Shown here: piece by piece, positions 5,345 through 34,806 of the stretch
How positions within the stretch are numbered: position 1 is the first letter of the stretch
Layout of the letters: each line of letters opens with the position of its first letter
NCBI RefSeq assembly: GCF_006274605.1
Contig: NZ_CP040846.1
Span: forward strand, 1,743,041 to 1,807,040
Direction of reading: 5' to 3'
DNA: 64,000 nt
Origin: Thermococcus indicus
Lineage (GTDB): Archaea > Methanobacteriota_B > Thermococci > Thermococcales > Thermococcaceae
The notes under the pieces: model-generated
Databases searched by the model: none
Seen by the model: only the letters and a program-made list of their open reading frames with translations
What the model was told of the DNA's origin: nothing
Program-made: the position numbers and the translations under genes

Positions 5345-7252
5345 ATGACCGACTACTTTCCATACGAAAACCTGCGACCGAACCAGCGCGATTTCATAGA
5401 ACTGGTCTCAAAGGCAGTTGAAAACGGAGAGAACGTCATCATCGAGGCACCCACGGGATTCGGAAAGACCGTGAGCGTCCTGGCGGGAGTACTCCCCCAC
5501 GCCAAGGAAATGGGCTACAAGGTGCTCTACCTGGCCAGAACCCACAGGCAGATGGACAGGGTCATAGAGGAGCTAAAGGCGATAAGGGGGAAGAGCCCCG
5601 TTTCCGGCGTTGAGCTCAGGAGCAGGAAGGACCTCTGCCTGCACACGTACCTCACCCAGTTCACGAGCGACGCCTACACCGCCATGGTCGTCTGCAAGAA
5701 CCTCAAAAAGCTCGGGAAGTGCGAGTTCTACGAGAACGAAAAGAAGAAAAAAGCGGAGTTCGACGAGCTGGTGCGCTTCTTCCTCGGGGAGCCGAGTCAC
5801 CCCGCGGAGATACTCGACTACTCGCAGACCCTGGAGCTGTGCCCCTACGATTTAACCAAGAGGATAGCGGAGAAGGCGGACGTGATAGTCGCCAGCTACC
5901 TCTATCTCCTCAGCCCCACCATACGGGAGAACTTCATAAGCTCGCTCGACGTCGATTACTCTGACCTCATAGTGGTCTTCGACGAGGCCCACAACCTTCC
6001 GGATCAGGCGATTTCAGCACTCAGCGATAAAATAAGCATAAACACGATTAACAGGGCAATAAAAGAGGCCGATGAGTACAACGAGCACGAGATAGCAAAC
6101 TTCCTGAGCATCCTGGGCAGGGGGCTGGAGATACTGTTCCAGGAAAAACTGGCGAACAGGGACGTCCAGGAGACCGCCATCCAGCCAGAGCTGGTGTTCT
6201 CTCACGTTGTCGAGGTTCTTGGATTGGACACGAGGTGGCTCGTCAAGACACTCAACGACATGGTGGCGGTCGGGGATTCGATAAGGGAGGACAGGATAGA
6301 GAAGGGCAAACCCCCCCGCTCCTACATCGGGCGCGTCGGCGAGTTCCTTCTCCTGTGGCTCTCCCTCATCGGAAGGGAGGACTACCTGTTCCTCATGAGC
6401 AGGGACAGGGGGCTGAGCCTCGAGCTCGTTGCCCTTGATCCATCCAAGGCCCTGGGCTTCATAAAGGATGTCCAGAGCGCGATATTCATGTCCGGAACGC
6501 TCACCCCGCTTGAGGCCTTCCGCGATGTCATGGGCGTGGAAAACGCCCGCCTGAAGAAGTTCCCGAGGATGGTAAAGCGCGAGAACGCCCAGGTTCTGGT
6601 GGCCAAAGACGTCTCGACGAGGGGCGATGAGCGCTCGCTCCAGGTTTACAGGAAGATGGTGGACTACATAGTGGAAGCGGCGAAGATAATCCCAAAGAAC
6701 GTCGGGGTTTTCGCGGCATCCTACGAGGTTCTCCAGGGTCTTCTATCGGCGAACCTCCAGGTCAGGCTGGAGGAGACGGGAAAAGCAGTCTTCATCGAGA
6801 AGCAGGGTGTCTCTTCGGCTGAGAACGACCTCATGGTCGCCCAGTTCAAGGCCCACGCGAGGGGCAACGGGGCGGTACTGCTCGGCGTGATGGGTGGCAG
6901 GAACAGCGAGGGGCAGGACTACAGCGGGGACGAAATGAACGGCGTGGTGCTCGTCGGAATCCCTTACGCGAGGCCAACGCCGAGGGTTCAGGCCAGGATA
7001 AGGTACTTCGAACGCAAGTTCCCGGAGAAGGGCAGGTACTACGGCTACTACCTGCCGGCCCACAGAAAGCTCGTCCAGGCTGCGGGAAGGGTGCACCGCT
7101 CGGCCGAGGAGAAGGGTTCGATAGTGGTCCTCGACTACCGTCTGCTCTGGAGAGGGATAAAGAAAGACCTGCCGGACTGGATGGTGGAAACGGTGAGACC
7201 CGTTGATCTGGGAAGAATGCGGCTCTACCTCAAGAGGTTCTGGGCTACCTAA
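5345..7252 (+). CDS. XPD/Rad3-type Fe-S DNA helicase
   Basis: A 635-residue superfamily 2 helicase. Walker A APTGFGKT is at about residues 35-42. The four Fe-S cluster cysteines follow at about 98, 117, 126 and 166. The DEAH box (VFDEAHNLPD) is near 223, SGTLTP is motif III-like, and QAAGRVHRS is motif VI. This order is diagnostic of XPD/Rad3/DinG-type 5'-3' helicases, which act in archaeal DNA repair. ATG 5345 is chosen because it begins right at the conserved YENLRPNQRDFI stretch and lies about 30 bases after an AT-rich promoter (AAAAGTTAAAA, 5311-5321), suggesting a leaderless transcript. It converges with and overlaps the next gene by 8 bases. Confidence 0.94.
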   Translation: MTDYFPYENLRPNQRDFIELVSKAVENGENVIIEAPTGFGKTVSVLAGVLPHAKEMGYKVLYLARTHRQMDRVIEELKAIRGKSPVSGVELRSRKDLCLHTYLTQFTSDAYTAMVVCKNLKKLGKCEFYENEKKKKAEFDELVRFFLGEPSHPAEILDYSQTLELCPYDLTKRIAEKADVIVASYLYLLSPTIRENFISSLDVDYSDLIVVFDEAHNLPDQAISALSDKISINTINRAIKEADEYNEHEIANFLSILGRGLEILFQEKLANRDVQETAIQPELVFSHVVEVLGLDTRWLVKTLNDMVAVGDSIREDRIEKGKPPRSYIGRVGEFLLLWLSLIGREDYLFLMSRDRGLSLELVALDPSKALGFIKDVQSAIFMSGTLTPLEAFRDVMGVENARLKKFPRMVKRENAQVLVAKDVSTRGDERSLQVYRKMVDYIVEAAKIIPKNVGVFAASYEVLQGLLSANLQVRLEETGKAVFIEKQGVSSAENDLMVAQFKAHARGNGAVLLGVMGGRNSEGQDYSGDEMNGVVLVGIPYARPTPRVQARIRYFERKFPEKGRYYGYYLPAHRKLVQAAGRVHRSAEEKGSIVVLDYRLLWRGIKKDLPDWMVETVRPVDLGRMRLYLKRFWAT

Positions 7253-7607
7253 CCGTGAACTCCCTCTCCACCCTAATTTTGGCGCCCTTAACGTACGCAA
7301 ACTTAACGACCTTGTAGCGTCCGGGAGGCAGATCGACGGGGATGCGCTGTTCGATGGTCTCGCCGGGAATTAAAACAACCCTCCGGTTCAAAAAAACTAT
7401 TCCCGGATCCAGCTTCTGCCAGAACCCGATGTACTCATACAGTTCAGCCTCATTGTCGATCTCAACCTTCACAGTGTTCGGGTTGGATATCCAGAGAACC
7501 AGTTCCCCCCTGCGCGGTTTAACCTCGATGTCCAGCTCAACCTCTAAGGGGGTTCCAACGGTTATGACGCCCACACTGTCATTACTGGGGATTTTTATTA
7601 TCTTCAT
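7245..7607 (-). CDS. Unrecognised small beta-rich protein, 120 residues
   Basis: The protein looks like a single beta-sandwich: alternating strands such as LEVELDIEV and ELVLWISNPN, ending in a KIRVEREFTV strand, similar in feel to CARDB-like domains but without a signal peptide. ATG 7607 is chosen because the frame upstream runs into tRNA-Leu. A TATA-like TGTATAAAAAT lies at about 7660-7671 on this strand, giving a leader of roughly 30 bases. No function can be assigned. Confidence 0.68.
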   Translation of the reverse strand: MKIIKIPSNDSVGVITVGTPLEVELDIEVKPRRGELVLWISNPNTVKVEIDNEAELYEYIGFWQKLDPGIVFLNRRVVLIPGETIEQRIPVDLPPGRYKVVKFAYVKGAKIRVEREFTVR

Positions 7608-7763
7608 CGCCACTAAATGATGCGTTTCTAACGATAAATGTTTCGGTACACACAAATTTTTATACACATTCTCGAGGGTTCTTTCCGCAGTACAACCTGC
7701 TGAAACAACCGTGTTAGCGCTTAAATTCCAGATGAAGATTCTCGGAACCAGAAAAGCGCCGTT

Positions 7764-7851
7764 TGGTGCGGGGGCGGGGATTTGAACCCCGGAACCCCTA
7801 CGGGACGGGACCCTCAATCCCGCGCCTTTGACCAGGCTTGGCAACCCCCGC
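7764..7851 (-). tRNA. tRNA-Leu(GAG), CCA encoded
   Basis: Read on the minus strand, a 7-bp acceptor stem (GCGGGGG/CCCCCGC) closes a cloverleaf with anticodon loop TTGAGGG (anticodon GAG), a long type II variable arm and a GGTTCAAATC T-loop region, as expected for tRNA-Leu. The mature body is 7767-7851 and CCA is encoded at 7764-7766. A TATA-like AAATTTATAAAGG lies about 35 bases upstream. Between TATA and tRNA is a nearly perfect hairpin (7866-7880, 6-bp stem) in the 5' leader. Confidence 0.95.
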
Positions 7852-7865
7852 GTCGCCAAATTATA

Positions 7866-7880
7866 AGGCTCGGGGAGCCT
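7866..7880. repeat. Inverted repeat between DUF835 gene and tRNA-Leu
   Basis: AGGCTC, a GGG loop and GAGCCT form a perfect 6-bp stem, with flanking TTATAA on both sides extending the symmetry. It lies downstream of the DUF835 stop codon and upstream of tRNA-Leu on the same strand. It could be the 3' end hairpin of the first transcript or a leader structure of the pre-tRNA. Confidence 0.5.
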
Positions 7881-7895
7881 TTATAAATTTTACGG

Positions 7896-8642
7896 TCACA
7901 TGGGGAGCTTTCTGAACTCCCTCTCAAGCAGGGTTACCATCTTTTCGCCCAGCGTCTCGGGGGAAGCGATTATAACCAGCCCGGCACCTTTGGTCAGCAG
8001 TATATCCTTCAGATGGAGAACAAAGCGCAGAACAGCATCCTCTCCGTTGTGCAGCACAAGATAATCCACACTGTCCAGTATAACAAAGGTGTCCCTGTCA
8101 ACGCTCGTTGTTACCGCATGGAGGAGCGGTGCGAGGGCAGTGGGAGACACGGCATTCGATCCCCCAACGTTGCTGAGCCAGATGTAGGAGGCACCACAGC
8201 GAAGGTACACCTCCGGGAAGCGAGTAACGCCGAGAATTTTCTTGCCCGAGAGGAGGCGTAAAACCGAGTCAACAGACATCGATCTTACGAGGTACGGCCC
8301 GGGCGAGATGGTGGACGTGCCGTCAAAAACAACATGGGGTTTGACGTGCGTCGCAATCGCCCGCCTCGTGGTGATGGAGCAAACCATAACAATCCCCATG
8401 CCGAGGGCAACCAGGACATCATCCAGAATCTTCAGAAACTCCGAGGATACCACATCATTAAGCACATTGACCCCGTAACCCAGCAGAAGTAGCAGGCTTC
8501 CAAGGGTAAGGGCACGAAAAACGCCCTCACCAAGGGTGTCTCTGATAACCCTACGTAAAGCCATGAAGGAGTAAATCGCCCCCATCACCGCAATAAATGC
8601 CACAACCTCTGCCGCAAGTTTCACATGTTCGTAAGTGATCAT
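7896..8642 (-). CDS. DUF835 domain membrane protein
   Basis: A 248-residue protein with three hydrophobic N-terminal segments (about residues 8-28, 42-62, 72-92) followed by a soluble domain with the DUF835 pattern: YLV...VLRLL, ILGVTRFPE, YIWLSNVGG and FVILDSVDYLVLHNG. DUF835 resembles a KaiC-like fold without a Walker A motif and occurs at the end of archaeal sensory proteins; here it is tethered to the membrane. A TATA-like GGATATAAACC lies at about 8666-8676 on this strand. The function is unknown. Confidence 0.8.
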   Translation of the reverse strand: MITYEHVKLAAEVVAFIAVMGAIYSFMALRRVIRDTLGEGVFRALTLGSLLLLLGYGVNVLNDVVSSEFLKILDDVLVALGMGIVMVCSITTRRAIATHVKPHVVFDGTSTISPGPYLVRSMSVDSVLRLLSGKKILGVTRFPEVYLRCGASYIWLSNVGGSNAVSPTALAPLLHAVTTSVDRDTFVILDSVDYLVLHNGEDAVLRFVLHLKDILLTKGAGLVIIASPETLGEKMVTLLEREFRKLPM

Positions 8643-8756
8643 CGTTTCAACATGATGGGCGGGGTTTATATCCTTTTCGCGAGGGTAAGATGTGGCCTTT
8701 GAAGCTCCACACCGAAAAATTTATAAAGCAACCTCCCGTCTATGACTTCGGGTTAA

Positions 8757-8834
8757 GGGCCGGTAGCTCAGCATGGTTAGAGCGCGGGACTCTTAATCCC
8801 GTGGTCGGGGGTTCGAATCCCCCCCGGCCCGCCA
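8757..8834 (+). tRNA. tRNA-Lys(CTT), CCA encoded
   Basis: The 7-bp acceptor stem GGGCCGG/CCGGCCC encloses a D-arm (TAGCTCAGC), an anticodon loop CTCTTAA with anticodon CTT, and a T-arm with GGTTCGAATCC. The mature body is 8757-8831 with CCA at 8832-8834. A clear TATA box (TTTATAAA, about 8720-8727) lies 30 bases upstream. The deaD gene follows only 69 bases downstream. Confidence 0.96.
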
Positions 8835-8837
8835 GAC

Positions 8838-8903
8838 CGCGTTTCTTCTCGACGCGTTCCGTTTGAGAAGGGATGCGTTTGAGTAACGTAAGGAGTTAGG
8901 AAA
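8838..8903 (+). promoter_or_regulatory. Leader region between tRNA-Lys and deaD
   Basis: This 66-base stretch has no AT-rich TATA box. It holds a possible hairpin (CGCGT at 8838-8842 with ACGCG at 8852-8856) and a direct repeat CGTTTGAG at 8860-8867 and 8876-8883. It ends with an AAGGAG ribosome site near 8890. The helicase mRNA may start at or before the tRNA, or within it. Cold-inducible deaD genes of Thermococcus are known to have regulated 5' leaders; whether this is such an element is inference. Confidence 0.45.
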
Positions 8904-10178
8904 ATGAGTTTTGAAAGATTGGGCTTATCGGAGGCCACGTTAGTGGCGGTTAGAGAGAAGGGTTTTGAGACCCCAACGGACATTCAGAGGGAGGTCATTC
9001 CACGTCTTCTATCGGGCGACGTCGATATAATCGGCCAGTCCCAGACCGGGACGGGAAAGACTGCCGCCTTTGCGCTCCCCATAATCGAGGCGATTGATCC
9101 GAAGATAAAGGCCGTTCAGGCGATAATATTGACCCCCACGAGGGAGCTCGCCCTCCAGGTGGCTGATGAAATCAAGAGCCTCCGCGGGAGGAAGAGGGTT
9201 TACGTTTACGCCGTCTACGGCGGTCAGCCGATAGGGCCGCAGATAAGGGCACTTGAGAGGGGAACCCATGTTGTAGTGGGGACTCCTGGCAGGGTTCTCG
9301 ACCACATAAGGCGCGGAACCCTCGACCTGAGCTCCGTAAAGTTCTTCATCCTCGATGAGGCCGACAGGATGCTCGACATGGGCTTCATAGATGATATAGA
9401 GGCGATTTTCAGGGAGACGCCGAGAAAGAAGCGCGTGCTGATGTTCTCCGCCACGATGCCGCCGGAGATAAAGAGGCTCGCGAGGCGCTACATGGGTGAC
9501 TATGAAGTCATAAGCGTCAGCAGCGACGAGCTCGTCCCGGAGATGGTGGATCAGGAGTACATAGAGGTCGTTCCGGCGAGGAAGCTCACGATGCTCAGGA
9601 AGATACTCGATGACACCGGGGACTTCTACGGCATAGTCTTCTGCGCCACCAAGAGGGAAACCCGGGAGCTGAGTGAGAAGCTCAGGAGGGCCGGCTACAG
9701 CGCCGAGGCACTCAACGGCGACATGAGCCAGGCCGCGCGCGAGAGAACCTTCTGGCGCTTCAAGACCAAAAAAACCAGGGTTCTCGTTGCGACGGACGTC
9801 GCCGCCAGGGGCCTCGACGTGCAGGACATAAACTGCGTCGTGAACTACTCCCTGCCCATGACGGCCGAGGACTACGTCCACAGGATAGGCAGAACCGGCA
9901 GGATGGGCAAGAAAGGAAGGGCGGTGACCTTCATAATGCCCGGCGAGTTCAGGAGGCTCCGCTACATCGCCCAGACCGCGGGCGTTGAGATACGCAAGTC
10001 CGAGCTGAGCGAGGAGATTCCGCGCGAGTACCGCGAGAGATATGAGAGGGAGAGCCAGAGGAACAGCGGTTCAAAGGGCTACCGCAGGAACCCGGGCCAC
10101 TCGAGGAGCTACGGCAGGGACGGAAGAGGCAGAAGGAGAAACTACTCCGACGGCTACTCCCACGATTACCGCTATTGA
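8904..10178 (+). CDS. deaD: DEAD-box RNA helicase
   Basis: A 424-residue ATP-dependent RNA helicase with all core motifs: Walker A SQTGTGKT (residues 46-53), PTRELA, GG, TPGR, DEAD (about 151-154), SAT, and HRIGRTGR in the second RecA domain. The C-terminal 60 residues form a low-complexity tail rich in Arg, Gly, Ser and Tyr, typical of RNA-binding helicase tails. Archaeal DeaD proteins unwind structured RNA and are often cold-induced. The AUG is preceded by AAGGAGTTAGG. The short distance to tRNA-Lys suggests co-transcription or an unusual promoter. Confidence 0.95.
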   Translation: MSFERLGLSEATLVAVREKGFETPTDIQREVIPRLLSGDVDIIGQSQTGTGKTAAFALPIIEAIDPKIKAVQAIILTPTRELALQVADEIKSLRGRKRVYVYAVYGGQPIGPQIRALERGTHVVVGTPGRVLDHIRRGTLDLSSVKFFILDEADRMLDMGFIDDIEAIFRETPRKKRVLMFSATMPPEIKRLARRYMGDYEVISVSSDELVPEMVDQEYIEVVPARKLTMLRKILDDTGDFYGIVFCATKRETRELSEKLRRAGYSAEALNGDMSQAARERTFWRFKTKKTRVLVATDVAARGLDVQDINCVVNYSLPMTAEDYVHRIGRTGRMGKKGRAVTFIMPGEFRRLRYIAQTAGVEIRKSELSEEIPREYRERYERESQRNSGSKGYRRNPGHSRSYGRDGRGRRRNYSDGYSHDYRY

Positions 10179-27983: not shown

Positions 27984-28772
<789 letters not shown>

Positions 28773-29339: not shown

Positions 29340-29461
29340 CCCCCTTTAGCACTGTCCTTTACTCCCTTATCACTAATCGAGTTAGCTTTTTAACTGTTCT
29401 TAGGTAGAAACATAACGGGTAAATATGAAAGTCACGACATGTTTTTCGGCCGGTGAAGGAG

Positions 29462-30130
29462 ATGTCCATAATATTCACCCAACTCCACGAGGAAATTAAG
29501 TATACAGCAAAGCAGATTGGGCTCAACCTGATTTCCATCCCATGGCTCATGGCGGTTATCTACCTCTTCACCAGCTGGACTCCCCTTTCGAGCGCCGCCA
29601 TTGTCGGAACCTCCAGCTTCTCCATCGCCGTTATAGCCGCTCTATTCTTTGGAGGTTCTATAGTCCGGGAAAAGTTCCTTGGAATCCACGAGATGCTCCT
29701 CAGCCTTCCGCTCGACCCGGTCAGGCTCATGCTCACGAGAACCCTCGCGAGCTTCGTTATTGGAATAACCGGAATTGCACTGGGGAGTGCCGTGGGATGG
29801 TTCATCACACTCCACGTGAGCACTCCAATACCCCTAACAACTGTGCTCTTCGGGATTCTAATCTCGGCTCCAGCGCTCTTCAGCTTCACTTTTTTGGTGA
29901 TTTTAATAACGCTCCTCTTTCAGTCAAGGTACCTCGACATAGCGAAGTTCATCATTTTCTTCACGGCATATTTTGCACCCGCGTACATTCCCAAGTACTT
30001 CGGAGTTGGCCTCTCGTTGGAGACCGCACTGGTGTTATCGCTCCTGCTGTCTATAGGGGCACTCGCGGTCTCGTTTTCGATTATCCGTCCCTTAGGGGAG
30101 AAGCTTGCCGAGAGGATAGTGTTAGTGTGA
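29462..30130 (+). CDS. ABC-2 type permease subunit 1 of the RiPP locus
   Basis: About 222 residues with six predicted membrane helices after a short cytosolic N-terminus (HEEIKYTAKQIG). It is clearly paralogous to the permease at 33210: both share EVKYTAKELG-like starts, a central SPALFSFTFL/ISCIPLLFAF helix, a YFGVGL loop and an ERI(V/I)LV end. ATG 29462 lies 6 bases after GGTGA; a GTG at 29453 is in frame. With its partner and the ATPase at 33910 it likely forms a heteromeric exporter or immunity pump. GC content is ordinary, unlike the peptide and rSAM genes. Confidence 0.82.
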   Translation: MSIIFTQLHEEIKYTAKQIGLNLISIPWLMAVIYLFTSWTPLSSAAIVGTSSFSIAVIAALFFGGSIVREKFLGIHEMLLSLPLDPVRLMLTRTLASFVIGITGIALGSAVGWFITLHVSTPIPLTTVLFGILISAPALFSFTFLVILITLLFQSRYLDIAKFIIFFTAYFAPAYIPKYFGVGLSLETALVLSLLLSIGALAVSFSIIRPLGEKLAERIVLV

Positions 30131-30256: not shown

Positions 30257-30299
30257 AAAAATTTAATAACTCCATGTTGCTAACCCTTAGTTTAGGAAA

Positions 30300-30311
30300 G
30301 AATTAAATACT
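30300..30311 (+). promoter_or_regulatory. Putative promoter of the peptide-rSAM operon
   Basis: AGAATTAAATAC gives a purine-rich BRE-like part followed by TTAAATAC as TATA box, about 25-30 bases ahead of the GTG at 30332. This would place the transcript start almost at the ribosome site GGTGATC (30332-30337 region). Confidence 0.5.
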
Positions 30312-30331
30312 CAAAATACCATTAGATATCG

Positions 30332-30484
30332 GTGATCCCTGTGGGATGGCTGTGCTACGCGATATGTGGAACAATTTGTGTTGGGGGTTGTACAGCAGCT
30401 TGCGGTGTTACTTCAGGGGCAGCACTGGCCGTAGCTTCCCAAGGATTAATGGCAGGAGGAACTGCAGCAGCATTTGGGCGTTGA
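30332..30484 (+). CDS. Putative sactipeptide-type RiPP precursor, C-x3-C repeat
   Basis: A 50-residue peptide with cysteines at 8, 12, 16, 20 and 24, a strict every-fourth-residue register, followed by a hydrophobic tail rich in Gly, Ala, Ser and Thr with almost no charge. The GW at residues 5-6, the C-x3-C spacing and the tail recall the beta peptide of thuricin CD, a sactipeptide whose cysteine sulphurs are linked to alpha carbons. An in-frame TAG at 30323 prevents a longer N-terminus, so the leader is at most 4 residues (start GTG 30332), or 1 if GTG 30341 is used; the near absence of a leader is unusual. The radical-SAM gene starts 13 bases later. Too short for many gene finders. Confidence 0.75.
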   Translation: MIPVGWLCYAICGTICVGGCTAACGVTSGAALAVASQGLMAGGTAAAFGR

Positions 30485-30497
30485 AAGGTGAGAAGCA

Positions 30498-32009
30498 GTG
30501 TCTCAGTTCATTCGTTCTTTTACTTTTTTCCGAACGAATTCTGGTAACGAATATCTATTCGATGATATAACCGGAGTGGTACTTCAAATTCCGGCGGAGA
30601 TTAGCTCACGAATTAAACATATACTCTTCGATAGTACAACACCTGCTGAGGCCTTAATAAAGGTTTACAAAGAAGCACCTGAGGAAAATAATTATGCTAG
30701 AATTTACAAAATTTTAGAAACTCTGATCTCTAATTTTGGAGCATTTTACAGGCTTCCTATGAAGATCAGTACCTCTGAAATAGAAGAGGGTATTTTGCAG
30801 TATATGATCCTAAGAGACGGGCTTTATGAGCTACTTCTGGAAGTTACTGATAACTGCAATTTCAGATGTCGGTATTGCGTATTCGGGGGTAATTATAAAG
30901 ATTTCAGGACCCATGGATATTCGTTCATGACACTGGAAACTGCAATAAAAGCCATTGACCTGTACTTTGAGTACCTAACGGAGGGAGCGTTATTGAATCC
31001 AATGAGAGAGCCAACTATAGCTTTCTATGGAGGAGAACCTCTTCTTAACTTTAAACTTATTGAAAAGTGTGTTGAATATGTGAATCAGACTTATTCTGAT
31101 GAATTTGCCCCTCGATACACAATTACAACTAATGCTTCCTTGATAACTAAAAAAATAGCAGAATTCCTTGTCAAAAATGATTTTGATGTGTTTATAAGCT
31201 TGGATGGACCTCAAGAGGAACATAATCGGAATAGAGTCTTGGCTAACGGCAGAGGTACTTTTGACCTAGTGATAAGGGGCATATCTAACCTTAAGAATGC
31301 CCAGAGAAAACACGACGGCTCTAACAAGGAGTATTTCGCCCTAATCACATATGATCCAAAGTCAAATTTATATGATATCACGAAGTTTTTTGGTGAGGAA
31401 TCACCAATAAAGCCAATATTTGCAAATCCCGTACGTTCTATGGGTACTACGTATTATTTGCCATTTACTGAAGAAGACTACATGAATCACGAGAAGATGT
31501 TACGGGAACTCTTTAAGAAATTCCTCAATGATTCTCGGAACGGTCACAAGTCAGCCTTTTCTGAAATTTTATTTGGTGGTCCTGGATCTTTAATGTTCTA
31601 TCGGAACATGTTAAGCCGTAAGAATCCAACGGCAATATTCACCTCAACTTGTATTCCAGGGTTTAAATGGTATGTAACCACCGGTGGGAAGATTCAGGTA
31701 TGTGAAAGGGCACCCTATAGCACCATAATCAGAGACGTCAATAAAGGTCTGGATTTCTCTGCAATAAAAACACTAATTCAGAGGTACTTCAAGTTGATAG
31801 TGGATAAATGCAATTACTGTGGCCTAGCCCACAGTTGCGCAAGATGCTTTGCATACATGGATTCAGAGGACTGTACTCTCTTTAAACGCTGGGTGATTGA
31901 CGGATTAAAAACAGCATTTACAATATATGAAAATAATCCCGAGTATTTTGAAAAAAGATTGTCAGTGCTAAAAGAAAAAGGTGGAATCTATGCCGTGGAA
32001 ATTCTTTAA
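30498..32009 (+). CDS. Radical SAM/SPASM peptide maturase, canonical
   Basis: A 503-residue enzyme. The N-terminal 100 residues resemble a PqqD-like peptide-recognition domain (SGNEYLFDDITGVVLQIPAE). The radical SAM cluster motif CNFRCRYC is at residues 120-127, and AFYGGEPLL follows near 175-183. The C-terminal SPASM region has C-x12-G-x4-C (GGKIQVC) and then C-x2-C-x5-C-x2-C with a later Cys (CNYCGLAHSCARC). SPASM enzymes such as AlbA and TrnC/TrnD form thioether links in sactipeptides. GTG 30498 follows AGGTGAG. The gene is clearly AT-rich relative to its surroundings, hinting at transfer. Confidence 0.9.
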   Translation: MSQFIRSFTFFRTNSGNEYLFDDITGVVLQIPAEISSRIKHILFDSTTPAEALIKVYKEAPEENNYARIYKILETLISNFGAFYRLPMKISTSEIEEGILQYMILRDGLYELLLEVTDNCNFRCRYCVFGGNYKDFRTHGYSFMTLETAIKAIDLYFEYLTEGALLNPMREPTIAFYGGEPLLNFKLIEKCVEYVNQTYSDEFAPRYTITTNASLITKKIAEFLVKNDFDVFISLDGPQEEHNRNRVLANGRGTFDLVIRGISNLKNAQRKHDGSNKEYFALITYDPKSNLYDITKFFGEESPIKPIFANPVRSMGTTYYLPFTEEDYMNHEKMLRELFKKFLNDSRNGHKSAFSEILFGGPGSLMFYRNMLSRKNPTAIFTSTCIPGFKWYVTTGGKIQVCERAPYSTIIRDVNKGLDFSAIKTLIQRYFKLIVDKCNYCGLAHSCARCFAYMDSEDCTLFKRWVIDGLKTAFTIYENNPEYFEKRLSVLKEKGGIYAVEIL

Positions 32010-33213
32010 GCTATACCCCTGGGTATATTACTGTAAGGGAACAAATGGAGCAACACTCTACGACTGGTTGAACGGGAAAATACTGAGTCTAAACAATGAG
32101 CAGGCAAAAGTGCTGGAAAAACTAATAAATGGGGTCTTTGAGGAGGATATTCTCAAGCAGGATAATATACTGGCCAAGTTGAGGGACTTTGGGTTTGTTT
32201 CTTCGGATAATATTTACATTGACAATCTCACCTTAGGTTCAAAACTTCAAAAAGTGATGCAATTTATAAATACTTTCCATGTACAGAGACTTGATTTAGT
32301 ACTTAACACGCCATGCGACAGATATGAGTCATGTCCCATAAGAAATTCTATGGTTGTATCTCATGCATGTGAATCCTGCTTAGGATGTGCAAAAAAGGAT
32401 ATGCCAGACAGAAATATTAACCCTAAAAAACTGGCAGAGCTGTTAAATGTGTTTAGGCCTCAGGTGGTGACTCTAAGCGGGGGAGAACTGTTTAGTGATG
32501 TTCCTTTAGTCAATAATGTGTTATCTCTGCTTTTAGAGTCTAAATATCCCGATATAGCCGTTTTAATAATGCCTTTGCATTCCATTGTGAAATTCAGAAG
32601 TGAAGTTGCTAAACACACGAGTATGTTTTTAGAACGGGGCAAAAAGCTTGCACTGACTGTTGTACTTACCAAGCATGAGTTCGAAGGCATCCCGAAAATC
32701 TTAGGAATGATGAAAGAACTCAATATTACTCTGACATTTGTGGCGTATATGAATCTTGATAAACCCCCTGCAGAGATACCAGAATTGAACAGCTTACAAA
32801 AAACTGTCACAATAGTATCCGCTTTCTATTCTCTCAGCGGGCGGAACGTTCTTGAGAATCTTGAGAAATTTTTAAACATGCAATACGTGAATCCCTACAT
32901 AGTTAACTCTCCAGCAATTGAGAACTTAATAAATGCCATCGAGTATGGCTATGCCAGTTGTTTATATGGAAATCTCATGATAGACCTTCCTAATGGGATT
33001 ATAACTCCATGTAAAGGATATTGCCTCCTGAATTATATCCAGAAAGAATTAAACCGAAAAGCACTTCAGAAGGTTATGTTGTTATGGGAAGACCCATGCC
33101 GAGATTGTTCCCTAAAAGGAGCGTGCACTATATGCCGTTCGATAGTTGAATCCATTAATATCACTCCCCACTCATGTCCAATATGGGAAAAGCCTTGGAG
33201 GTTTAAGAAATGA
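31990..33213 (+). CDS. Radical SAM/SPASM-like protein with non-canonical cluster motif
   Basis: A 407-residue protein. The start resembles a PqqD-like domain (GATLYDWLNGKILSLNNEQA). Where the radical SAM CX3CX2C is expected, cysteines occur at 109 and 115 (CDRYESC) and at 127, 130 and 133 (CESCLGC, a CX2CX2C). A GGE motif (TLSGGELFSD) follows near 164. The C-terminal SPASM pattern is complete (C...G-x4-C, C-x2-C-x5-C-x2-C, later Cys). It may be a divergent maturase or a partner that lost SAM chemistry. ATG 31990 follows AAAGGTGG, overlaps the first maturase by 20 bases, and the stop overlaps the next start (ATGA), so the genes are translationally coupled. Confidence 0.85.
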   Translation: MPWKFFKLYPWVYYCKGTNGATLYDWLNGKILSLNNEQAKVLEKLINGVFEEDILKQDNILAKLRDFGFVSSDNIYIDNLTLGSKLQKVMQFINTFHVQRLDLVLNTPCDRYESCPIRNSMVVSHACESCLGCAKKDMPDRNINPKKLAELLNVFRPQVVTLSGGELFSDVPLVNNVLSLLLESKYPDIAVLIMPLHSIVKFRSEVAKHTSMFLERGKKLALTVVLTKHEFEGIPKILGMMKELNITLTFVAYMNLDKPPAEIPELNSLQKTVTIVSAFYSLSGRNVLENLEKFLNMQYVNPYIVNSPAIENLINAIEYGYASCLYGNLMIDLPNGIITPCKGYCLLNYIQKELNRKALQKVMLLWEDPCRDCSLKGACTICRSIVESINITPHSCPIWEKPWRFKK

Positions 33214-33890
33214 CTCACAAGATGATCAAATCTCCTTTAATGGAGGAAGTTAAATACACTGCGAAAGAGCTGGGAACCCTTGGAGTGAGCGCCCTGGCGA
33301 ACGTAGCTATAATCTACACGGTAATCCCCATTCTCAGCCCCGGTCTTGAGAATGGACTAACCCTTGGAATGCTGGCAGTAGCGTTCTCCCTCATGGTCAG
33401 TATCATCGTAACCTCCCCCGTATCATGGGCCAAGACGATAGGAACACTGGAGATGCAGCTCTCAGGCCCCTTCTCTCCTCGGGGAATCCTTCTCCTAAAG
33501 GCTGTGGTCGCTTCCATCTATGGACTCCTCCCTATCGGGGGAGGCCTTGCAATTGGAAGCATAGTCAGAACGTTTATTGGAGCGAAAACCACCCCGTCCT
33601 TGCTATTCTTTACCATGATCTCCTGCATTCCCCTGCTCTTTGCCTTCAGTCTGCTGTTCACACTGTTGTGTGCCCTCGTGGAGCAGAAACACCTCGATTT
33701 TCTGAAAGTTGCTGTGTTCATGGTAGCCTACCTCCTTCCCCTGTACCTTGCGAGATACTTTGGAGTCGGCCTTTATCTCTCAAGCGCCCTGTTCATCGCT
33801 CTTCTCATCCTGTCGCTTGTGCTGGCAGTTTACTTTGCAGTACTCAAGTACTATGGAGAAAGGCTCTCGGAAGCCATAATCTTGGTGTAA
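33210..33890 (+). CDS. ABC-2 type permease subunit 2 of the RiPP locus
   Basis: A 226-residue protein with six predicted membrane helices, paralogous to the permease at 29462. The ATG overlaps the stop of the second maturase by 4 bases, binding it to the peptide operon. Base composition returns to that of normal Thermococcus genes from here on. It probably pairs with permease 1 and the downstream ATPase to export the modified peptide or protect the producer. Confidence 0.84.
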   Translation: MTHKMIKSPLMEEVKYTAKELGTLGVSALANVAIIYTVIPILSPGLENGLTLGMLAVAFSLMVSIIVTSPVSWAKTIGTLEMQLSGPFSPRGILLLKAVVASIYGLLPIGGGLAIGSIVRTFIGAKTTPSLLFFTMISCIPLLFAFSLLFTLLCALVEQKHLDFLKVAVFMVAYLLPLYLARYFGVGLYLSSALFIALLILSLVLAVYFAVLKYYGERLSEAIILV

Positions 33891-33909: not shown

Positions 33910-34806
33910 ATGATAGTGCTCGAAAACGTGAGGAAGACCATTAGAGGAAAGGAAGTCCTCCGCGGGATAAGCCTGACTGTGAAGCCCGGCGAAATCCACG
34001 CCTACCTCGGCCACAATGGAGCCGGCAAAACAACAACCTTCCGCCTGATTCTCGGCATCCTCGTCCCGGACTCCGGCAGGGTAGAAGTCCTCGGCGTCAA
34101 TCCCCTCAAGAACCCGGAGGTGAGGGCCAAAATCGGCTACCTGCCCGAGTACGACCTCCTCTACCCAAACCTCACGGTTCTTAACAACCTCAGGCGCTAC
34201 GCCCTGCTGAAGGGAGTTTACGATGAGAAGGAGCTTAAGGACCTCATTGAGTTCTTCGAGCTTGAAGGGTACGCTAAAAAGAAGGTCTCAGCCCTCTCAA
34301 GCGGGACCCGGAGGAGGGTTGCGATGGCGAGGGCCTTCCTTGGGAGTCCAGAGGTTCTAATCCTCGACGAGCCCACGAGGGGCCTCGACCCCGAATGGAG
34401 GCTTAAATTCAAGCGGTTTTTGGGGGAATACGCGCGGGAAAACAACGCCTCAGTTATTTTCTCGACGCACATACTGAGCGATGTCGATGAGGTGTGCGAA
34501 AACGTCACTGTAATCATGGAGGGCAGAATACTCTTCTCGGGAAGCCTTGGGGAGTTCAAAGAACTCGCCCCAAGCGGCGAGACTGTCCTCGTGAAGGTGG
34601 CAGAAGTGAAGGGGGCCCTTCGGGTGCTTAGGGAAAACGGTTACTCACCCGAGCTGAGGGGTGAGTACATAGTGCTGGAGGACGCCGAGTCTCCGGAAAT
34701 CAACGCCCTCCTCGTGGGGGCCGGCCTGAAGGTTGAGGAGGTTAAGAGAAAGGAACCGAGCCTTGAGGAGGTTTACACCATGCTCCACGGGAGGTTGGCA
34801 CAATGA
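33910..34806 (+). CDS. ABC transporter ATPase of the RiPP locus
   Basis: A 298-residue ATP-binding subunit: Walker A GHNGAGKTT (about residues 35-43), Q-loop region YLPEYDLLYPNL, signature ALSSGTRRRV (a variant of LSGGQ), Walker B VLILDEPTRGLDP and switch FSTHILSD. The extra C-terminal 80 residues match ABC-2 drug/peptide exporter ATPases (CcmA/NatA type). The ribosome site GAGGTGATTCC lies just before the ATG, 19 bases after permease 2. It would energise the two permeases. Confidence 0.93.
   Translation: MIVLENVRKTIRGKEVLRGISLTVKPGEIHAYLGHNGAGKTTTFRLILGILVPDSGRVEVLGVNPLKNPEVRAKIGYLPEYDLLYPNLTVLNNLRRYALLKGVYDEKELKDLIEFFELEGYAKKKVSALSSGTRRRVAMARAFLGSPEVLILDEPTRGLDPEWRLKFKRFLGEYARENNASVIFSTHILSDVDEVCENVTVIMEGRILFSGSLGEFKELAPSGETVLVKVAEVKGALRVLRENGYSPELRGEYIVLEDAESPEINALLVGAGLKVEEVKRKEPSLEEVYTMLHGRLAQ

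What the first reader, a model, noticed from the sequence alone, without database searches (positions are those of the whole stretch)
30332..30484. Precursor peptide with five cysteines at exact four-residue spacing and almost no leader
Cysteines at 8, 12, 16, 20 and 24 give a perfect C-x3-C ladder, longer than the three-Cys ladder I recall in thuricin CD. An uncharged Gly/Ala/Ser/Thr tail could offer alpha-carbon acceptors. An in-frame stop at 30323 limits the leader to 4 residues, while both maturases have PqqD-like recognition domains that normally bind a leader. Recognition might use the C-terminal tail, or the start may lie elsewhere.
Basis: partly seen in the sequence, partly recalled or inferred. 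Interest (0 to 1): 0.9.

Follow-up and report, generated by a model that had tools for sequence, protein, structure and literature searches.

The report
Leader-free archaeal thioether-peptide gene cluster
A heat-loving archaeon (Thermococcus-like) carries a real, conserved gene for a tiny peptide with five evenly spaced cysteines and almost no leader, next to a pair of enzymes like those that build the antibiotics thuricin CD and thuricin Z, except that the second enzyme has lost the standard iron-sulfur motif; this gives a natural test of how such enzymes handle a peptide without a leader.

Summary
The five-cysteine ladder is real and coding. Two related genomes carry the same gene; between them the ladder frame shows 19 synonymous and 1 non-synonymous codon changes, the rival ATG-30346 frame 3 and 17. 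The start is most likely GTG 30341, not 30332: it lies 5 nt behind the Shine-Dalgarno GGTGA and is ATG in three relatives. The peptide is then 47 aa, with four residues before Cys5.

The operon (permease, precursor, rSAM1, rSAM2, permease, ATPase) resembles the two-radical-SAM sactipeptide clusters of thuricin CD and thuricin Z. rSAM1 is TrnC-like. rSAM2 is TrnD-like, keeps TrnD's Cx2Cx5C motif, but lacks CX3CX2C in all three archaea; a Coriobacteriales relative lost it independently. Leaders of 4-5 residues recur in several lineages of this enzyme-pair clade.

In thuricin CD the RREs dock the two enzymes together and TrnD's radical-SAM cluster is dispensable (PMC12093266). That explains an RRE without a leader; C-terminal recognition is not needed.

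I read it as a leader-free sactipeptide with up to five links, made by a TrnC-like catalyst plus a pseudo-TrnD: a new variant of a known kind. The chemistry is inferred, not shown.

The parts
29453..30130 (+). permease A (ABC-2 type), orthologous to the cluster permease of G025/G058/G009
   Evidence: Pfam ABC2_membrane_3, below gathering score; 76% to the G009 permease
30290..30309 (+). conserved BRE/TATA-like promoter element (GTTTAGGAAAGAATTAAATA)
   Evidence: aligned and conserved in four genomes; promoter role inferred
30331..30338 (+). Shine-Dalgarno GGTGATCC
   Evidence: conserved GGTGA in four genomes; spacing statistics
30341..30484 (+). precursor peptide gene, 47 aa, five-Cys CX3 ladder (Cys 5, 9, 13, 17, 21), start GTG 30341
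   Evidence: orthologues and codon substitution pattern
30498..32009 (+). rSAM1: TrnC-like RRE/radical SAM/SPASM enzyme, predicted sactisynthase
31981..33213 (+). rSAM2: TrnD-like partner lacking CX3CX2C, with Cx2Cx5C auxiliary motif
   Evidence: low-confidence model
33210..33890 (+). permease B (ABC type)
   Evidence: 29-31% identical to permease A and the G058/G025 permeases; same permease pair in G027
33910..34806 (+). ABC ATPase
   Evidence: Pfam ABC_tran; orthologues in G009, G010, G082

Best explanation
A leader-free sactipeptide cluster of the two-radical-SAM (thuricin CD / thuricin Z) type in a Thermococcus-like archaeon. Translation from GTG 30341 gives M-GWLC...; the Met is probably removed because Gly follows, so little or nothing is left to be cut off as a leader. 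rSAM1 (TrnC-like) uses its radical-SAM and SPASM clusters to abstract alpha-hydrogens in the Gly/Ala/Ser/Thr tail and joins the N-terminal Cys sulfurs to those alpha-carbons, giving a nested hairpin with up to five rungs, one more than thuricin Z. rSAM2 is a TrnD-like partner that probably no longer does standard radical-SAM chemistry: it docks on rSAM1 through the RREs and helps hold the peptide. The RREs are kept as a docking interface although the leader is gone. The ABC permeases and ATPase export the product and/or give self-immunity. Shown here: the gene, its frame, conservation, operon, enzyme families and the loss of CX3CX2C. Inferred: the chemistry, docking, Met removal, export or immunity.
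For: Coding frame and conserved ladder. Start site. TrnC-type SPASM spacing C385-x11-G397-x4-C402-x35-C438-x2-C441-x5-C447-x2-C450-x8-C459 against C-x11-G-x4-C-x36-C-x2-C-x5-C-x2-C-x14-C reported for TrnC (PMC12093266). TrnD-type Cx2Cx5C in rSAM2. Enzymes with a TrnD-like partner form one clade, 98/98 support. Same gene set beside a 'huazacin family RiPP peptide' in Ruminococcus albus. Leaders of 4-5 residues behind clear Shine-Dalgarno sites in E. ruminantium (MGVVC), Coriobacteriales (MAINC), Aeribacillus (MATLFC) and a Bacilli genome (MAVLFC). TrnC and TrnD bind through RREs, RRE deletion abolishes crosslinking, and the TrnD radical-SAM mutant still gives full product. ABC genes survive where biosynthetic genes are relics or absent.
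Against: No product, mass or enzyme assay. TrnC and TrnD sequences were not compared directly; the match rests on published motif spacings and on relatives. rSAM2 keeps a GGE motif and five conserved Cys in the loop, so an unusual cluster is possible. The rSAM2 model is poor (pLDDT 48.5), so its RRE is not proven. ThzC and ThzD were each reported to form sactionines alone (PMC8172795), so dependence on the pair is not universal.
Confidence: 0.6

Rival explanations
1. rSAM2 is still a radical-SAM enzyme: an unusual arrangement (C112-x5-C118-x11-C130-x2-C133-x2-C136) binds the catalytic cluster, and both enzymes modify the peptide.
For: All five Cys and the GGE motif are invariant in three species that are 65-66% identical overall; non-standard radical-SAM motifs such as CX5CX2C exist (own knowledge).
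Against: All other paired relatives except one have canonical CX3CX2C plus a separate CxxC, so C133/C136 or C130/C133 correspond to that extra pair; the Coriobacteriales relative lost all three Cys of the motif and keeps the operon; the TrnD radical-SAM site is dispensable.
Confidence: 0.22
2. The maturases recognise the C-terminal half of the peptide, with the RREs binding the tail instead of a leader.
For: No leader, RRE present on rSAM1; tail positions T24, A28, V31, S33, Q34, A38, G39, T41, A42, A44 conserved in three species.
Against: Tail conservation is equally expected for crosslink acceptors; RREs have a shown docking role in TrnC/TrnD; no tail-binding precedent was found here.
Confidence: 0.15
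3. The product is not a sactipeptide: rSAM1 makes another linkage (ranthipeptide-type or other), or the Cys mainly bind metal.
For: rSAM1 best matches CcpM among NCBIfam models, below cut-off, and CteB in structure, whose family includes non-alpha linkages (own knowledge).
Against: No Asp/Glu in the window peptide; Cys ladder at the N-terminus with an uncharged tail matches thuricin CD/Z; clade shared with a cluster whose precursor is annotated huazacin family.
Confidence: 0.15
4. The real product is the overlapping frame from ATG 30346, or the ladder is chance.
For: The frame is open for 74 codons in the window.
Against: 17 of 20 changed codons non-synonymous between G025 and G058 in that frame, 1 of 20 in the ladder frame; Shine-Dalgarno gap of 10 nt.
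Confidence: 0.01

Closest known systems
Thuricin CD (TrnA/TrnB with TrnC/TrnD; PMC12093266)
   Same: Two radical-SAM-type proteins, TrnC-type seven-Cys SPASM and TrnD-type Cx2Cx5C; CX3 Cys ladder at the N-terminus and a small-residue tail
   Different: Five Cys instead of three, one precursor instead of two, no leader, TrnD-like partner without CX3CX2C, archaeal host
Thuricin Z / huazacin (ThzA with ThzC/ThzD; PMC8172795)
   Same: Two radical-SAM genes, four-Cys CX3 ladder (Cys 4, 8, 12, 16), ABC transport genes; the R. albus cluster annotated huazacin family has the same gene set
   Different: One rung fewer, ThzD reported active on its own, two precursor copies
Relatives found here: E. ruminantium L057, Coriobacteriales L099, Aeribacillus L059, TA06 L058, Methanothrix-side archaea L056 and L166-L170
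   Same: Adjacent TrnC-like and TrnD-like genes in one tree clade; several with 4-5-residue leaders
   Different: Canonical CX3CX2C in the TrnD-like partner except L099; candidate precursors of the Methanothrix-side clusters are not ladders
CteB, PapB and CcpM thioether synthases
   Same: RRE plus radical SAM plus SPASM architecture of rSAM1
   Different: rSAM1 scores far below the NCBIfam cut-offs; different precursor type, no partner enzyme

Membership tests
Sactipeptides | Cys sulfur to alpha-carbon thioether links | not testable with these tools
   needs MS/MS
Sactipeptides | radical SAM/SPASM synthase encoded beside a Cys-bearing precursor | tested here: met
Sactipeptides | N-terminal leader recognised by the synthase (general rule, PMC8172795) | tested here: not met
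   four residues before the first Cys from GTG 30341, seven from GTG 30332; in-frame stop at 30323
Thuricin CD/Z two-enzyme type | TrnC-like enzyme with CX3CX2C and seven-Cys SPASM | tested here: met
   two spacings differ (x35, x8 instead of x36, x14)
Thuricin CD/Z two-enzyme type | TrnD-like partner with Cx2Cx5C auxiliary motif | tested here: met
   C373-x2-C376-x5-C382
Thuricin CD/Z two-enzyme type | TrnD-like partner has the radical-SAM motif CX3CX2C | tested here: not met
   absent in three archaeal species; present in all other paired relatives but one
Thuricin CD/Z two-enzyme type | RRE domains on both enzymes that dock them together | tested here: inconclusive
   clear in the rSAM1 model; rSAM2 model too weak; docking not testable here
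Thuricin CD/Z two-enzyme type | nested hairpin built from an N-terminal CX3 Cys ladder | tested here: inconclusive
   ladder present and conserved; ring topology needs MS/MS
Huazacin precursor (NCBIfam) | precursor matches a curated family model | tested here: not met
   no NCBIfam or Pfam match up to E 0.1
Ranthipeptides | acidic acceptor residues between the Cys | tested here: not met
   no Asp or Glu in the window peptide

The most novel reading that the evidence does not exclude
A sactipeptide pathway that needs no leader at all: the RREs have become a docking interface between the catalyst and a pseudo-radical-SAM partner that holds the bare core peptide, and in two separate lineages (Thermococcus-like archaea and a Coriobacteriales bacterium) the partner has lost its radical-SAM site.
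Probability: 0.4. Interest if true: 0.78.

Novelty: new variant of a known kind. Interest (0 to 1): 0.62.

Why it matters
RiPP maturases are generally described as finding their substrate through a leader bound by the RRE. Here a conserved cluster keeps an RRE and lacks the leader, and it offers a natural version of the laboratory TrnD mutant that lost its radical-SAM cluster yet still works. Proteins of hyperthermophiles are often good for structural work, so the two-enzyme complex with a 47-residue substrate would be an accessible target. I found no paper on Thermococcus sactipeptides in the held library, so this would extend two-enzyme sactipeptides to hyperthermophilic archaea; most subscription journals are not in that library.

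Tried and rejected
The ATG-30346 frame was rejected by codon substitution pattern and Shine-Dalgarno spacing. A second precursor, as in thuricin CD, was not found: one match in the own genome, no other convincing ladder in the window. Plasmid tblastn of the precursor gave only chance-level hits (E 3-6). The first genome-contig scan with three close orthologues found nothing; a more diverse alignment worked. The rSAM2 model is too weak to lean on; its Foldseek hits to SuiB, CteB and SkfB are only suggestive. A link between leader loss and CX3CX2C loss was considered: both pseudo-TrnD lineages have four-residue leaders, but E. ruminantium has a four-residue leader with an intact motif, so any link is one-way and the sample is small. 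Acceptor positions guessed from thuricin Z spacing (10, 4, 4, 4, 4 after the last Cys would give 31, 35, 39, 43 and the final residue 47) are speculation and not used as evidence. An earlier count said 48 of 51 for the 3-7 nt spacing; the correct count is 47 of 51.

Full report
Observation. The ORF at 30332-30484 exists as described, with Cys every four residues and an in-frame TAG at 30323. Only one five-Cys CX3 ladder occurs in the window; 60 simulated windows gave none, and four-Cys ladders occur at 0.03 per window.

Is it a gene? A search of 61 genomes of the genus with the first maturase found two orthologous clusters at 80-82% identity, and both carry the same precursor upstream. Between G025 and G058 the precursor differs in 20 codons: 19 synonymous, 1 not, with 19 of 20 base changes at third positions. 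In the overlapping ATG-30346 frame 17 of 20 changed codons alter the protein.

Start. GGTGATCC at 30331-30338 is the Shine-Dalgarno. In 51 Thermococcales ORFs with GGTGA upstream, the gap to the start is 3-7 nt in 47. GTG 30341 has 5 nt, ATG 30346 has 10, and GTG 30332 lies inside the motif. The codon at 30341 is GTG in the window and ATG in G025, G058 and G009, as expected of a start codon. The peptide is then MGWLCYAICGTICVGGCTAACGVTSGAALAVASQGLMAGGTAAAFGR. A BRE/TATA-like element at 30290-30309 is conserved in the four genomes; the transcription start is inferred and a leaderless mRNA read from 30332 is not strictly excluded. Either way the leader is at most seven residues.

Operon. Permease A (29453), precursor, rSAM1 (30498), rSAM2 (31981), permease B (33210), ATPase (33910). 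In G025 and G058 the order is precursor, rSAM1, rSAM2, permease, ATPase.

rSAM1. Radical SAM with CNFRCRYC, a GGE motif and seven SPASM Cys. The best NCBIfam model is CcpM (222 bits, cut-off 500), so it is no named equivalog. The AlphaFold model (pLDDT 78.6) has beta-beta-beta-alpha-alpha-alpha at residues 8-80, which is an RRE, and is closest to CteB in the PDB. Its SPASM spacing closely follows that reported for TrnC (PMC12093266).

rSAM2. No family hit and no PDB sequence hit. Its relatives are the second enzymes of two-enzyme clusters: Ruminococcus albus plasmid pRUMAL03, whose precursor is annotated 'huazacin family', Eubacterium ruminantium, Aeribacillus, TA06, Coriobacteriales and Methanothrix. 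Searches of samples of their classes added further pairs, including several from the Methanothrix-side archaea. All paired TrnD-like proteins keep CX3CX2C except two lineages: the three Thermococcus-like ones (C112-x5-C118-x11-C130-x2-C133-x2-C136) and the Coriobacteriales one (no Cys in that loop before CNSC). All keep the TrnD auxiliary motif Cx2Cx5C. In the tree of first enzymes the paired ones form one clade (98/98), and the Coriobacteriales enzyme groups with TA06 and Eubacterium at starred support, away from Thermococcus, so the two losses look independent.

Leaders across the clade. Residues before the first Cys: 4 in the archaea, E. ruminantium and Coriobacteriales; 5 in Aeribacillus and one Bacilli genome; about 10-12 in TA06 and another Bacilli genome; 18 in R. 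albus. A short leader is thus a recurrent trait of this clade, not a quirk of the window.

Mechanism. Jia et al. 2025 (PMC12093266; [quoted passage not shown] Thuricin Z has four nested links from a CX3 ladder (PMC8172795). Together these make it most likely that the cluster makes a nested sactipeptide with up to five links, with rSAM1 as catalyst and rSAM2 as a docking partner. The RREs are kept for docking, which explains their presence without a leader. The chemistry itself is inferred.

Biological role. In G009, G010 and G082 the biosynthetic genes are relics while permease and ATPase genes remain (the G010 permease next to the relic is split). The permease family occurs in 17 of 61 genomes of the genus, mostly without biosynthetic genes, and in G027 as an ABC set 84-89% identical to that of the G058 cluster. 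Keeping the ABC genes alone is what immunity would look like and fits an antagonistic peptide; it does not prove it.

Verdict. Real, conserved and correctly noticed; the start site and the enzyme roles are refined. It works like the thuricin CD/Z systems but fails two features of that kind (a leader; a radical-SAM motif in the partner), so it is filed as a new variant rather than a plain member.

Noticed in passing
L048 (G009:C1:1410000-1428000), 5575-9927: The precursor's promoter and first 27 or so codons and the last 40 codons of rSAM2 flank an unrelated radical-SAM / PqqD-like / ABC cassette (its radical-SAM gene is split over two frames), as if one RiPP cassette had replaced another inside the operon.
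   Followed up: partly
L050 (G082:C11:250000-268000), 9059-9318: A precursor relic runs into the C-terminal end of rSAM2 after an internal deletion, followed by intact permease and ATPase genes.
   Followed up: partly
L017:963-1175 (+) and L019:2248-2460 (-): Two Cys-rich 71-residue peptides with a similar N-terminus (MEFxIxExGSxExxAGN-like) and a CxCH end lie upstream of other radical-SAM genes in G034 and G047; probably a separate RiPP precursor family.
   Followed up: no
L173 9105-8884 (-): Precursor with seven Cys at CX2 spacing (CVACYACVACIACLACLAC) beside a TrnC/TrnD-like pair in a Bacilli genome.
   Followed up: no
L058 239-709 (+): TA06 bacterium precursor with a five-Cys CX3 ladder (CWVTCTALCEAACLTAC) and a longer leader, beside a TrnC/TrnD-like pair.
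   Followed up: partly
L167 about 4748 (+) and L166 (- strand) small ORFs: Candidate precursors with clustered Cys but no CX3 ladder beside TrnC/TrnD-like pairs in Methanothrix-side archaea; product type unknown.
   Followed up: no
window 27984-28772 (+): (R)-S-adenosylmethionine hydrolase gene (NF053629, above cut-off) about 1.6 kb upstream of the cluster; probably unrelated.
   Followed up: no
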